From Pseudomonas fluorescens (GTDB lineage: Bacteria; Pseudomonadota; Gammaproteobacteria; Pseudomonadales; Pseudomonadaceae), in the NCBI RefSeq assembly GCF_019212185.1, contig NZ_CP078138.1, forward strand, positions 1,966,501 through 2,030,500: a DNA stretch of 64,000 nucleotides, given 5' to 3'. Shown one piece after another: positions 42,256-47,952 of the stretch. The notes under the pieces were generated by a model. That model did not search any database. It was not told the origin of the DNA and was given only the letters and a program-made list of their open reading frames with translations. Position 1 is the first letter of the stretch; each line of letters starts with the position of its first letter. Made by a program: the position numbers and the translations under genes.

Positions 42256-42771
42256 TTAGAAGTTGTCAGTGGAGGTGAATACGCCGACCCGTAGGCCTTC
42301 GGCGGTGTAGATCTCGCGGCCGTCAACGCTGACCGAACCATCGGCGATGGCCAGGTTCAGTTTGCCTTTGAGTACGCGCTTGATCTGGATGTTGTAGGTA
42401 ACTTTGCTGGCGGTCGGCAGGACCTGACCAAAGAACTTCACTTCGCCCGAACCCAGGGCGCGACCGCGGCCTGGCAGGCCTTGCCAGCCGAGGAAGAAGC
42501 CAACCAGTTGCCACATGGCATCGAGGCCCAGGCAGCCTGGCATCACCGGGTCACCTTCAAAGTGGCAGGCAAAGAACCACAGGTCCGGGGTGATATCCAG
42601 CTCGGCGACCAATTCACCTTTGCCGTACTTGCCACCCTCTTCGCTGATGTGGGTGATGCGATCCACCATCAACATGTTCGGGGCGGGCAGTTGCGCGTTA
42701 CCTGGGCCGAACAGCTCACCGCGACTGCAGCGCAGCAGATCTTCCCGGGTAAAGGCGTTTTGTTTGGTCAT
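42256..42771 (-). CDS. fabA: 3-hydroxydecanoyl-ACP dehydratase/isomerase
   Basis: This 171-residue hotdog enzyme makes trans-2- and cis-3-decenoyl-ACP, the branch point for unsaturated fatty acids. The catalytic His is in [20 protein letters not shown] (about residue 70), with the Asp on the following helix. Length is the family norm. A palindromic DesT-like site lies about 130 nt upstream. Confidence 0.98.
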
Positions 42772-42903
42772 GCGAGCTCCTCAATAATCCCATGCGGCAG
42801 GTGGGGCGAATCTTCCCGGCCGCTACAAGGCATTCATGCCTGGTAACGGCAGCCTACTCATAGACTATTGCGTTGTAGTGAAAGTCACAGGACAAGGGAC
42901 ATG

Positions 42904-42921
42904 AATGTACACTTGTGCACT
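42904..42921. promoter_or_regulatory. DesT-like operator candidate upstream of fabA
   Basis: AATGTACACTTGTGCACT is imperfectly palindromic. It matches about 13 of 18 positions of the DesT site as I remember it from P. aeruginosa (AGTGAACGCTTGTTGACT). DesT is a TetR-family sensor of acyl-CoA saturation that controls fabAB and desCB. Confidence 0.5.
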
Positions 42922-43019
42922 GAAATTATTATTCAAGCCCAAAAACGAGCCTGTCGAGGTGTCTAAGACTGCCGCACTTTCGCCTTTCACGCCAGTCACA
43001 GATGCTCGATAACCGCGTA

Positions 43020-44901
43020 CTACTGCAGCCAACGCTGGAGAATTTGCTGCAGATCAGTGCGTTTGAAAGGCTTCGCCAGGTAATCGTTCATGCCCGCCGA
43101 CAAACACGCTTCCCGGTCACCCTGCAGGGCGTTGGCAGTCAGGGCGATGATCGGCACGTCGGCGCAGCCGGGCAATTGGCGGATTTGCCGCGTCGCTTCG
43201 TAGCCGTCGATGATTGGCAGCCGGCAATCCATCAGAATCGCCTCGTACCGCAGGCCTTCGGCGCTCTGCACGGCCTGTGCACCGTCGTCGGCAAGGCTAA
43301 CGGTAAAGCCCAGGCTGCGCAGCATTGCTTCAATCACGGTCTGGTTAACCGGGTTGTCCTCCACCAGCAGGACATGACGCCCGGCACCGTTGACGGTCGT
43401 GGCTCGCGGCGCCGGAGTGGGCGGTGGCAAGGCCTGGCGGGACAGGGCCAAGGGAATTTCGAGAGTAAAGACCGAGCCCCGGCCTTCTTCGCTTTGCGCG
43501 CGCAGCGTACCGCCCATGCGTTCGGCCAGGGCTCGGGCAATGGGCAGACCCAGGCCTGTGCCGCCGTAGCGGCGGGAGATTGAACTGTCGGCTTGCTGGA
43601 AGGCATTGAACATCGGTTCCAGGTTGTCGGCGGCGATGCCAATGCCGCTGTCGCGCACGGTGCAGGTAAACCAGAGCAATTCATGATCGAGGGATTGCCA
43701 CTGCGGTTCGATGGTCACCTGGCCGCGTTCAGTAAACTTCAAGGCGTTGCCGATCAGGTTGACCAGAACCTGCCGGATCCGCGTAGGGTCGCCTTGGACT
43801 TGCAGTGCCTGCATACCTTCGGGTAGCTGCAGTTGCAGCTTCAGGCCGCGCTGCACGGCGCTGTGGGCGAAGGCCTGGGCGCAACTGCTGATCAAGTCGG
43901 CGAGATTGAATGCGATGTGCTCCAACTCGAAGGGCGCGCGTTCGATACGGGAGAAATCGAGAATATCGTTGATCACCTTGAGCAGGTGTTCGGTGGACTG
44001 GGAGGCCAGCGCCGCGTATTCCACCTGCTCATCGGTCATCTGCGTGGTTTCGAGCAGTTGCAGCATGCCCAGTACGCCATTCATGGCTCATCATTGCCAG
44101 GAAATCGGATTTTGCGCTGTTGGCCTTTTCTGCTTCCTCGCGGGTCTGGATCAACTGGGCCATGGCTTGCTGCTGGTCGTGGCTGGCGTGTTTCAGGCCG
44201 TCGGCGAGGTTGTTAATGTGCCGCGCCAGGCTGCCCAGTTCGGCATCATCGACAATCGGCAGCGGGGTACTGTAGTCGCCTTGCTGGATCGCTTTCACCG
44301 CATTGCCCATGGCGCTGATCGGCTCGGACAGGCTGGCGGCGAGGCGACGCGCCAGGACGAAAGTGAAGAGCAGGGCGAACAGCGCGAGAATCCCGGCCTT
44401 GAGCACGATTTCCTGTTGGCGCTGGTTGAAGGCGTCGTTGGACATGCCGACCACCACCCGTCCCAAATAATCCTCGGCGACTCCGCCATTCGGCGGCGCG
44501 CCCTGCAGAAAGTCATTGTTCAGCGAGATGCGCTGCAGGCGCACCGGGGCCTGGAACACTTCGACCAGTTGCGATGTTTCCCTGGAGAGCGACGGCTGCT
44601 CGACATGCACCAGGATGTTGTTGGCGCTGTCGCGGACCTGCAGGAAGCGCACATGGGGCGTGGCCAGGGTCGCCTTCATTAGGCTTTCGAGGACTTCCTT
44701 GTTGCCGGAAATCACCCCGTACTCGGTGGCGGGGGCCAGTTGGTTGGCGATCAATTGCCCGGTGTGGTTGAGCTCCTGGCGCAGATCCTGGATGCGCACG
44801 AAGGTAAAGAAGCTGATCAGCAGCAGGGTCAGCAGCAAGGCCGGACCGAGACTGATCACCTGGGTGCGGGTGCTGATACCCCAGTGGCGGCGCAAGGTCA
44901 T
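43020..44901 (-). pseudogene. Hybrid sensor histidine kinase, frameshifted at the H-box
   Basis: The N-terminal frame (44029-44901, 290 codons) has a transmembrane helix, a periplasmic sensor, a second transmembrane helix, a HAMP domain and the start of the HisKA domain. It ends at MMSHE then WRTGHAATARNHADDR and stop. The C-terminal frame (43020-44084) resumes at MNGVLGMLQLLETTQ, with the rest of HisKA, a HATPase domain (FTCTVRDSGIGIAADNLEP, GGTGLGLPIARALAE) and a receiver (LLVEDNPVNQ, ILMDCRLPIIDGYEAT). The expected SHELRTPMNG joint is missing LRTPM, consistent with a 17-bp deletion between ATGAA repeats. Adding 17 nt restores a 633-codon gene. Its place beside fabA matches that of the RetS-interacting kinase PA1611. 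Confidence 0.85.
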
Positions 44902-45827
44902 GGAGTCGATTCTCCTTCGGCCAACTGAAGAGAGACCGTCGCCGGGTCAATTTGCTCGATTCCCAGCGATCGCGCCACTTGCGGGTTACTCGCCACCTTG
45001 AACCGCTTGGGATACAGGCTGCGAGGCCAGATGGAGGGCGGACGGTCGAGCAGGTCGTCAAGGATCGCCAGCCAGTCGTCCTGATCGCTGTAGCTACTGG
45101 CCAGGCTGCCGGCCTTGACGAAACCCGCATTGGGGCCGATCAGCGCTTGTTGCTGGCTGTAGCTGCTCAGTAGCAGGTTTTTCGCGGTGCTTGCATTAAA
45201 CAACTCGGCGTCATCAAGCCCCAGTAGCACATCGCTGTTCTTCAGCAGCGCTTGCAGAGGCCGGCTGTCGCGGGTGTCGTCCCAACGTTCGGCGACGATT
45301 TCCAGGCCCATGTGCTGAGCGCTGCCATGCAGTTCCTTGAGCAGGAATTCGCTGTTTTTGCCGTACACCACGCCGACTCGCCTGGCTTGCGGCAGCAGGA
45401 TCCGGGTCAGACGCAATTGACGGCTCAGGGGCGGATCGCTCCAGAGTAGGCACAGGTGCATGGGCCGGGTTTCGCCGACGCGCTGATTGGCTTGCACGCG
45501 GCTGACCCGCAGCACCAGGGTGGGCGGCCCCTGATTGTCCTGCAGGCGCCAGTCAAGGCTGGCCAGGTCCAGCAGAATCAGGCGGGTAGTGGTGGGGATC
45601 CGCGACGGTGCCGGCAACTGATCAAGGACGATAAAGCGCACAGTGTCTTTGGGTCGCCGTTCAGCGAGGGCCTGGGTGAACGCTTGCATGCCAGGGCTGT
45701 TCTCGGCACCGGTCAGCAGCACATCGGCTGCCCGCGCTGGCACTGCGCACAGGCTGGCGAGCAGCAGCATGCACGACCAACACCATAGTCTGCTCACTGC
45801 GCGAGTCACTCTGCGGGCCTGGTTCAT
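44898..45827 (-). CDS. Periplasmic ABC-type substrate-binding-like protein (stand-alone)
   Basis: This 309-residue exported protein (signal peptide CMLLLASLCAVPARA/A) resembles the ABC_sub_bind (PF04392-like) periplasmic binding proteins. Its pattern includes LILPQ-type and RRVGVVYGKNSEFLLKEL, LLGLDDAELFNASTAKNLLL and GPNAGFVKAGSLASSYSDQ. No ABC permease or ATPase is nearby. It overlaps the kinase start by 4 nt and follows the TonB receptor by 1 nt. It therefore more likely senses or presents a ligand to the kinase than feeds a transporter. Ligand unknown. Confidence 0.78.
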   Translation of the reverse strand: MNQARRVTRAVSRLWCWSCMLLLASLCAVPARAADVLLTGAENSPGMQAFTQALAERRPKDTVRFIVLDQLPAPSRIPTTTRLILLDLASLDWRLQDNQGPPTLVLRVSRVQANQRVGETRPMHLCLLWSDPPLSRQLRLTRILLPQARRVGVVYGKNSEFLLKELHGSAQHMGLEIVAERWDDTRDSRPLQALLKNSDVLLGLDDAELFNASTAKNLLLSSYSQQQALIGPNAGFVKAGSLASSYSDQDDWLAILDDLLDRPPSIWPRSLYPKRFKVASNPQVARSLGIEQIDPATVSLQLAEGESTP

Positions 45828-45828
45828 A

Positions 45829-47952
45829 TCAGAACGTCAACTCGGCGCTGAAATACACCACGTGACGCGAGTCGTAGTTATTGTCGGCGTAGGTGGTGGG
45901 TTGCGGATCGAGCCGCTGCTGCAGCATGCCGGCCAGCTCCAGGCTGGTCTTGCCCAGCAGCAGCCGTTTGGCGATGCGCGTATCGACACGTTCGAAGCGG
46001 TAACCATTGAGCGCATCAGCGCCATAGTAGAAGAGGGCGCTGCTCCAGCCTTGCCCCCAATCCCGCAGCCAGCCGGCGGAACCGCTGTGGCGCGCGGTCA
46101 ATGGCTCATCCAGAGGGCTGCTGGCCTGCGCATCGACATAGGCGTAGGTCAGGCGCAGCCGATCGGCGGCGGTCACGCGCCAGTCGAGCTGGGCTTCGCC
46201 ACCCTGGAAGCGCGCGGTGTTGGCGTTGCTGGCAATGTACTGATTGTTGCGCAGGGGCTCACTGATCATGCCGGTGATTTCGTCATGGAACAGTTTCGCG
46301 TCGAGGTTCAGCCCAAAGTCCGGGAAGAAACCGTTGTAGCCCACTTCACGCGAGCGCATGTGCTCTTGCTCCAGATCGCCCGGACCGCGGGTCCTGACGA
46401 AATAGCGGGCACTGCTCCGGCCGTAGGCGGCGGGCTGCAGTCCGTTGACCTGGTAACTCCAGTTGACGTTGTCCTCGAACATGTCCGGGGAGCGCACGGC
46501 TTCCGAATAGACCGCCCGCAGGCCGTGGCGCGGATTGATCAGGTAGTTGATCGCGAAGCGCGGTGTCAGCGAGTCGCCGATCAGGTAGTTGGTTTCGTAC
46601 ATGGCGCCGCCCTGCAGCAGCCAATGCTCAGTGGCACGCCACTCCAGTTGACCGAACAGACGCCAGGTCGTTTCAGCCAGGGTGCCATTGAAGTAGGTCT
46701 CGGAGTCGGCCCGGTCGTAACGGTAGTTCAGGCCGCTGACCAGTCGCAGGCTGTCGGAGAGGCCCAGGGTGTCCTGCACTTCCACTTCGTAGCGCGATTC
46801 GCGACTGCTTTGGTCGATGTCGCCGCACAGGGTTCGATTGGCGCCGCCTTTCCATTGCGCCAGCACCTGATTGGCCAGCGCTTGTTCCGCTGGTGCGGCG
46901 TAGGGTGCGCCGCTGCCGGTAAAGCTGTCCATGTGCCGCGCCAGTTGTTCGGCGTAGTTCGGGTTCAACTGCCAAAGCTCAGTCAACTGCGGGCTGAACG
47001 AGATCTCGGCATCGCAAGCGCGCCAGGTCTGTTGGCGATCCCAATGCTGGGCGGTGCCCTCGACATACAGGCTGTGATCAGGATCGAAGTCGAGATTCCA
47101 GCGCAGCGCGGTGGCATAGGTTTTGGCAATCACATCGGAACCGTTGCCTGAAGCGGTTATCCCGGAAAACACCGGACGATAGGTATAAGGCCGTTGGTTG
47201 CTGCCATCTTTGGCATTGAGTTGCCAATCGATGCTCTGCCGCTCATCGAGCGCCTGGCTGACAGCGAGGCTGAAGCGGTCCAGGCGCCGACTGTCGCGAT
47301 AGTCCGTGCCCATTTGATGGGTGTCGAACCCATCGTCCTGCTGGCCGGACAGTGACAGGCGCATGTCGCCGGACGCCCAGCCGTTGCCGTGGCTGGCATA
47401 CCAGTCGTTGATGCCGCGTTGACCGCGGGTAACCTTGACCCTCGAACCATGGCTGTGGGCGGGCGAGCGGGTAATGATATTGACCACCGCCATCAGGGCA
47501 TTGGCGCCGTAGCTGACCGTATTGGGGCCACGAAAAACCTCGATCCGTTCGATGTCCTCCATCGCTACGGTGATGTCACTCCATTCCACGGTCGCCAGGC
47601 CGGCCCGGTAGAGTGAGCGGCCATCGAGCAGCACTTGCATGCGTCGCGCCTGGCTGGCGTTGGTGCCGTGATAATTGACGGTCGGCTGGTTGCCCGTGAG
47701 ATTGCCGACCATCATCCCTGGCACCAGTCGCAGCACTTCGCTGATGTCCCGCGCGCCGCTGGCCTTGATCAGTTGGCTATCAATCACAGTCATGCTGCCC
47801 GGTACGGCGGCAGGCGATTGTTTGAGTCGGGTGGCCGTCAGCACTTGCGGCAACTGCGTGTTGTCGAGGAACAGGTCATCGGCCAGCAACGTGTCGCTGA
47901 AGATCAGCGCCAGGGCCAGCGACGAACGTAGAGGGCAGGGACCAGCAAACAC
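45829..47952 (-). CDS. TonB-dependent outer-membrane receptor
   Basis: This 707-residue outer-membrane receptor starts with GTG at 47950-47952. It has a signal peptide and a plug domain (VLTATRLKQSPAAVPGSMTV, then RRMQVLLDGRSLYRAG, IERIEVFRGPNTVSYGANAL and VVNIITRSP). A 22-strand-type barrel ends in VVYFSAELTF with the terminal aromatic residue. The plug resembles vitamin B12/heme/peptide-type receptors more than siderophore receptors with a signalling domain. It is the first gene of an operon with the binding-like protein and the hybrid kinase. Confidence 0.9.
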   Translation of the reverse strand: MFAGPCPLRSSLALALIFSDTLLADDLFLDNTQLPQVLTATRLKQSPAAVPGSMTVIDSQLIKASGARDISEVLRLVPGMMVGNLTGNQPTVNYHGTNASQARRMQVLLDGRSLYRAGLATVEWSDITVAMEDIERIEVFRGPNTVSYGANALMAVVNIITRSPAHSHGSRVKVTRGQRGINDWYASHGNGWASGDMRLSLSGQQDDGFDTHQMGTDYRDSRRLDRFSLAVSQALDERQSIDWQLNAKDGSNQRPYTYRPVFSGITASGNGSDVIAKTYATALRWNLDFDPDHSLYVEGTAQHWDRQQTWRACDAEISFSPQLTELWQLNPNYAEQLARHMDSFTGSGAPYAAPAEQALANQVLAQWKGGANRTLCGDIDQSSRESRYEVEVQDTLGLSDSLRLVSGLNYRYDRADSETYFNGTLAETTWRLFGQLEWRATEHWLLQGGAMYETNYLIGDSLTPRFAINYLINPRHGLRAVYSEAVRSPDMFEDNVNWSYQVNGLQPAAYGRSSARYFVRTRGPGDLEQEHMRSREVGYNGFFPDFGLNLDAKLFHDEITGMISEPLRNNQYIASNANTARFQGGEAQLDWRVTAADRLRLTYAYVDAQASSPLDEPLTARHSGSAGWLRDWGQGWSSALFYYGADALNGYRFERVDTRIAKRLLLGKTSLELAGMLQQRLDPQPTTYADNNYDSRHVVYFSAELTF

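What the first reader, a model, noticed from the sequence alone, without database searches (positions are those of the whole stretch)
44029..44086. Hybrid kinase cut exactly at its phosphoacceptor box by a likely microhomology deletion
The reading frame runs into MMSHE and then shifts. The downstream frame resumes at MNGVLGML. The family sequence SHELRTPMNGVLGML would need CATGAA, then about 12 nt, then ATGAATGGC. The window has CATGAATGGC. Loss of one ATGAA plus the intervening 12 nt (17 bp) explains both the missing residues and the frameshift. The retained ATG lies inside the junction, so re-initiation could yield a soluble ATPase/receiver fragment and a separate membrane sensor fragment ending just after the His. 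If the gene is the PA1611-type kinase that cross-talks with RetS/GacS, its loss could affect biofilm and secondary metabolism.
Basis: partly seen in the sequence, partly recalled or inferred. Interest (0 to 1): 0.7.

Follow-up and report, generated by a model that had tools for sequence, protein, structure and literature searches.

The report
Recently broken hybrid sensor kinase gene
A Pseudomonas genome carries a copy of a known regulatory sensor kinase that has been cut in two by a small, apparently private deletion at its catalytic histidine motif, so the gene is most likely simply inactive; this is an ordinary loss-of-function mutation.

Summary
On the minus strand a sensor half (44901-44029, 290 aa) runs through SHE and shifts frame; the second half (44084-43020, 354 aa) starts at MNGVLGML inside the junction. 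Of 109 relative loci aligned, 108 carry exactly 17 more bases and one carries 16. The gene is the PA1611-type hybrid kinase: sCache_4-HAMP-HisKA/HATPase-receiver, next to fabA as published for PA1611. The closest of the proteins compared (P0155, 97% and 95% identical to the two halves) is intact, and none of 341 retrieved proteins has the window's tail, so the break looks recent and private. Both halves have dN/dS near 0.08 to the nearest relative, like intact genes. The microhomology is only inferred: its spelling occurs in 40 of 108 intact relatives. Re-initiation is poorly supported (Shine-Dalgarno pairing -2.0 against -8.8 kcal/mol at the kinase's own start), and the phosphoacceptor domain is damaged in both halves. 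Phase variation is not supported. Other Pseudomonas genomes carry different breaks, gutted remnants or no detectable copy. Verdict: an ordinary pseudogene, likely null; low interest.

The parts
44029..44901 (-). N-terminal piece of the broken kinase: sCache_4 sensor, HAMP, first part of the phosphoacceptor domain up to SHE (274 native residues), then 16 out-of-frame residues and TGA
44076..44085 (-). deletion junction at the H-box: 17 bases fewer than in 108 of 109 relative loci
43020..44084 (-). C-terminal piece: rest of HisKA (profile positions 17-64 of 66), HATPase_c, receiver domain; 354 aa open frame from an internal ATG
44898..45827 (-). upstream gene, ABC_sub_bind-like protein (weak Pfam match, below the curated cut-off), overlapping the kinase start by 4 bases
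42256..42771 (-). fabA-like gene downstream of the kinase, same strand, 248 bases away (the name is recalled from the protein, not from a family search; the PA1611-fabA neighbourhood is in PMC3462791)

Best explanation
A PA1611-type hybrid histidine kinase was recently inactivated in this lineage by one 17-base deletion, probably replication slippage between short direct repeats, at the phosphoacceptor box. The frame shift ends the first protein 16 residues after the SHE motif. The second half has a poor start signal and lacks the histidine, so neither piece can be a working kinase. Shown: the deletion, the frame shift, intact close relatives, and the absence of the same tail among the retrieved proteins. 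Inferred: slippage as the cause, and loss of function.
For: 108 of 109 relative loci carry 17 more bases at the junction. The nearest protein compared, P0155, is intact, at 97% identity to the N piece and 95% to the C piece. Neither piece has a second break, and dN/dS against the nearest relative (L085) is 0.082 (N) and 0.084 (C), within the 0.05-0.20 of the intact pairs tested. None of the 341 proteins retrieved has the window's out-of-frame tail. Internal ATG: best anti-Shine-Dalgarno pairing -2.0 kcal/mol against -8.8 at the kinase's own ATG. Other Pseudomonas genomes show different frame breaks in the same gene, gutted remnants, or no detectable copy, so it is dispensable.
Against: Both pieces are still fully open and conserved, so selection to keep them cannot be excluded. 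The start of the upstream ABC_sub_bind-like gene (45827) also has weak Shine-Dalgarno pairing (-2.5 kcal/mol), so the start-signal argument is not absolute. Two genomes (G202, G255) keep an open receiver piece of this gene without its kinase core, so pieces may persist. No reads were available; an assembly error is possible. The 341 proteins are the listed tops of three capped searches, not everything in the database.
Confidence: 0.86

Rival explanations
1. Assembly or sequencing error: the strain's gene is intact.
For: No reads were examined. Close relatives are intact. A 1-base H-box break in a metagenome-assembled genome (L074, the same sequence as L148/G318 over the 3062 bases compared) shows that such breaks turn up in draft sequence.
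Against: The genome is one contig, given as 100% complete, and the change is a clean 17-base loss with a repeat-compatible junction, not a homopolymer slip.
Confidence: 0.07
2. Functional split: the two pieces are both made (re-initiation at the internal ATG) and act as a membrane sensor piece and a soluble ATPase/receiver piece, for example as a phosphate sink or a decoy for partner kinases.
For: Both frames are open with conserved sequence. In P. aeruginosa the RetS interaction of PA1611 is reported not to need its phosphorelay residues (passage). Elsewhere the gene persists without its kinase core: G202 and G255 keep a 197-codon open frame with the receiver beside fabA, and protein P0287 is sensor-HAMP-receiver without kinase core.
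Against: Poor Shine-Dalgarno at the ATG; the first frame's stop lies about 50 bases beyond it; the phosphoacceptor domain through which such kinases pair (recalled) is cut in both pieces; none of 341 retrieved proteins shares the tail.
Confidence: 0.05
3. Phase-variable switch by slippage.
For: Short-repeat-compatible junction.
Against: No tandem repeat in 42500-46000. Each of five intact relatives has 54-60 direct repeats of 5 or more bases at offsets 8-30 in this gene, so such a repeat is not special. Deletion between non-tandem repeats is not reversible by slippage (general knowledge).
Confidence: 0.02

Closest known systems
PA1611-type hybrid histidine kinase (Pseudomonas GacS/RetS/HptB network)
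   Same: Domain order sCache_4-HAMP-HisKA-HATPase-receiver without an Hpt domain (hybrid without H2 per passage in PMC11330419); directly upstream of fabA on the same strand.
   Different: Frame cut at the H-box by a 17-base deletion; four H-box residues are in neither piece.
GacS (unorthodox kinase; sCache_4 sensor)
   Same: Same sensor family; the own genome holds a separate open 920-codon match.
   Different: The GacS-like gene is elsewhere (contig 1, 4998071) and has no stop in the matched stretch; the window gene shows no Hpt domain.
Independent breaks of the orthologue in other Pseudomonas genomes
   Same: G238 is frame-shifted a few codons after the H-box and G318 (= L074) within it; G359, G192, G164 and G080 are broken elsewhere.
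   Different: Different positions and sizes; none of these has the 17-base loss.

Membership tests
PA1611-type hybrid kinase | sCache_4, HAMP, HisKA, HATPase, receiver, no Hpt | tested here: met
   (over the two pieces)
PA1611-type hybrid kinase | adjacent to fabA, same strand | tested here: met
   248 bases here, 188 bp reported in P. aeruginosa
PA1611-type hybrid kinase | single open frame with an intact H-box | tested here: not met
   hence filed only as a broken copy, not as a working member
PA1611-type hybrid kinase | binds RetS; phosphorylates HptB | not testable with these tools
   reported for P. aeruginosa (passages)
Recent pseudogene | frame disrupted relative to intact close relatives | tested here: met
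Recent pseudogene | no further decay yet, constraint still visible | tested here: met
   low power, since most of the branch predates the break
Recent pseudogene | no functional product made | not testable with these tools
   no expression data
Phase-variable locus | reversible repeat tract at the junction | tested here: not met

The most novel reading that the evidence does not exclude
The pieces are kept and used: the membrane sensor piece and the ATPase/receiver piece are both made and work as separate regulators in the Gac/HptB network of this strain, as one more route by which Pseudomonas turns this kinase into a kinase-free receiver or decoy (compare G202, G255 and P0287, which keep the receiver without the kinase core).
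Probability: 0.05. Interest if true: 0.45.

Novelty: new member of a known kind. Interest (0 to 1): 0.12.

Why it matters
It adds one clean case to a pattern that this survey suggests: the PA1611-type kinase is nearly universal in the genus (391 of 398 genomes with a strong match, the window's own split copy and other broken copies included) yet is repeatedly broken, gutted or lost in single lineages, as expected of a dispensable side input to the GacS/RetS/HptB network. By itself it changes little.

Tried and rejected
Conserved split: rejected, since relatives are intact and none of the 341 retrieved proteins has the same tail. P0001, a 354-aa protein that starts at MNGVLG, looked like a second split at first; five such proteins exist among the 341, four of them on contigs of 1.1-1.3 kb and P0001 on one of 2.85 kb, so contig-end calls are likely but unproven for P0001. 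Hotspot at the H-box: three breaks (window, G238, G318/L074) lie within about eight codons, but this was noticed after the fact, G318 is an 87% complete genome, and repeats of this size are common along the gene; not claimed. Old pseudogene: disfavoured by the low dN/dS and the absence of further damage. Relatives outside the genus: 15 of 36 genomes of the same order gave only weak, short matches to the junction DNA (E no better than 1e-8), so they add nothing. No structure prediction was run.

Full report
What is there. The minus strand holds a run of genes: a TonB-dependent receptor (47952-45829), an ABC_sub_bind-like protein (45827-44898; its Pfam match is below the curated cut-off), the kinase in two frames, then two genes that I take from recall of their proteins and position to be fabA (42771-42256) and fabB (42244-41024). 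The kinase's upstream frame starts at 44901, overlapping the previous gene by 4 bases, and reads through sCache_4 and HAMP to MMSHE; after 274 native residues come 16 out-of-frame residues and a stop at 44031-44029. The downstream frame starts at 44084 with MNGVLGML and carries the rest of HisKA, HATPase_c and a receiver domain.

The deletion. 109 loci of relatives were aligned across the junction: 80 named ones kept (its best 80 of 556) and 29, some being the same genome twice. 108 have exactly 17 more bases than the window and one, L074, has 16 (recounted). 108 of the 109 show one open frame with MMSHELR; L074 does not. The window therefore lost 17 bases (five codons and two bases): four H-box residues are in neither piece. 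The finding's 5-base repeat requires a particular spelling in the ancestor; 40 of 108 intact relatives have it. Slippage is plausible, not proven. Direct repeats of 5 or more bases at offsets 8-30 number 54-60 in the gene of each of five intact relatives tested, so the site is not special.

Is the split shared? The C piece as query gave no hit above 88% identity among the 120 listed of 7961; the N piece, among the 120 listed of 138, none above 81% over most of its length. These searches admit only proteins up to 1.75 times the query length, so full-length kinases were sought with a relative's intact protein (120 listed of 7991). Of the proteins then in hand, the best match to both pieces was P0155, 633 aa, 97% identical over the N piece and 95% over the C piece, intact at the H-box. 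Of 341 proteins retrieved in all, none has the window's tail; 250 read SHELRT, 1 SHELRP, 1 ends at SHE, and 89 do not contain the stretch searched for. The break is thus recent and, as far as seen, private. Both pieces keep dN/dS of 0.08 against L085, against 0.05-0.20 among the intact pairs tested; against more distant relatives the window gives 0.07-0.19. This test has little power, because most of the branch predates the break.

How often does this gene break? Of 398 genomes of the genus (the window's included), 391 have a match at E at or below 1e-100. I looked again at 12. G359, G238, G192, G164, G080 and G318 have frame breaks at other places, and G177 lacks most of the sensor domain in frame. 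Five gave no ortholog-grade match: their best matches are 33-41% identical kinases. But G202 and G255 also have a 66% match to residues 482-631, and the DNA shows a remnant of this gene beside fabA: two short N-terminal stretches (the first in another frame) and then the receiver, in a 197-codon open frame (the frame listing is for G255 only). So these two are gutted, not absent. For G041, G186 and G270 no remnant was seen among the rows at E up to 1e-40, and their fabA neighbourhoods were not looked at. A further 80 genomes, mostly those with the lowest scores, gave 75 near-full-length matches and 5 partial ones (G286, G316, G230, G321, G218), not examined further; G230's ends at a contig edge. 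The remaining genomes were judged from score alone or from the listed rows, and breaks near either end could be missed. G080, G218, G316 and G318 are under 90% complete, so some breaks may be draft errors.

What it does, and what losing it does. In P. aeruginosa, passages that I read say that PA1611 is a hybrid kinase related to GacS, binds RetS and counteracts its effect on GacS, and that this interaction does not need its phosphorelay residues (PMC4866733); that it passes phosphate to HptB along with two other kinases (PMC5992135; PMC11330419); and that its wild-type level is very low, so that relevance is uncertain (PMC5992135). PA1611 lies 188 bp from fabA, the PA1612-PA1611 operon is co-transcribed with fabAB, and deleting PA1611 did not alter fabA expression (PMC3462791 passages). 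The primary PA1611 papers cited there were not looked up or read. The own genome has open frames for a GacS-like protein (920 codons) and two 7TMR-DISMED2 proteins of the RetS/LadS kind (936 and 815 codons; names inferred from domains). So the core network appears present and one side input is gone. A strong phenotype is not predicted.

Could the halves work? The internal ATG pairs with the anti-Shine-Dalgarno at -2.0 kcal/mol, against -8.8 for the kinase's own start, -8.5 for the fabA-like and -4.9 for the fabB-like gene; the ABC_sub_bind-like gene's start is nearly as weak (-2.5), so this is not conclusive. A stop in the second frame lies just upstream of the ATG and the first frame ends about 50 bases beyond it, which leaves re-initiation possible but inefficient (general knowledge). 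The histidine is split from the rest of the phosphoacceptor domain. In favour of a surviving use: G202, G255 and P0287 show that this gene can persist as a receiver without kinase core. The most likely reading is still a null allele.

Verdict. It is an ordinary, recent loss-of-function mutation in a known gene.

Noticed in passing
L179 about 2280-2934 (G255) and L180 about 2624-1985 (G202): Beside fabA, two Pseudomonas genomes share a gutted form of this kinase: short N-terminal remnants, the kinase core gone, and the receiver domain kept (66% identical; a 197-codon open frame). A shared, still open receiver piece may be in use.
   Followed up: partly
protein P0287 (330 aa): A sensor-HAMP-receiver version of this protein with no HisKA or HATPase domain, apparently an in-frame loss of the kinase core in another genome.
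   Followed up: no
L156 about 2346-2349 (G238) and L148 about 500-510 (= L074, G318): Two other genomes have independent single-base frame breaks within a few codons of the same H-box; G318 is an incomplete assembly (87%).
   Followed up: partly
L146 (G177); also protein P0059, Ectopseudomonas alcaliphila: A version of this kinase that lacks most of its periplasmic sensor domain in frame, apparently still open.
   Followed up: no
genomes G041, G186, G270: High-completeness genomes of the genus in which no copy or remnant of the orthologue was seen at the thresholds used; the fabA neighbourhood was not inspected.
   Followed up: no
window 44898-47952: A TonB-dependent receptor gene and an ABC_sub_bind-like gene lie directly upstream and abut or overlap the kinase, which suggests a shared operon and perhaps a ligand-linked sensor.
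   Followed up: no
G000 contig 1, 4804711-4805841: Another kinase match in the own genome is reported with two TGA codons inside the matched stretch; it may be a broken gene or an over-extended alignment.
   Followed up: no
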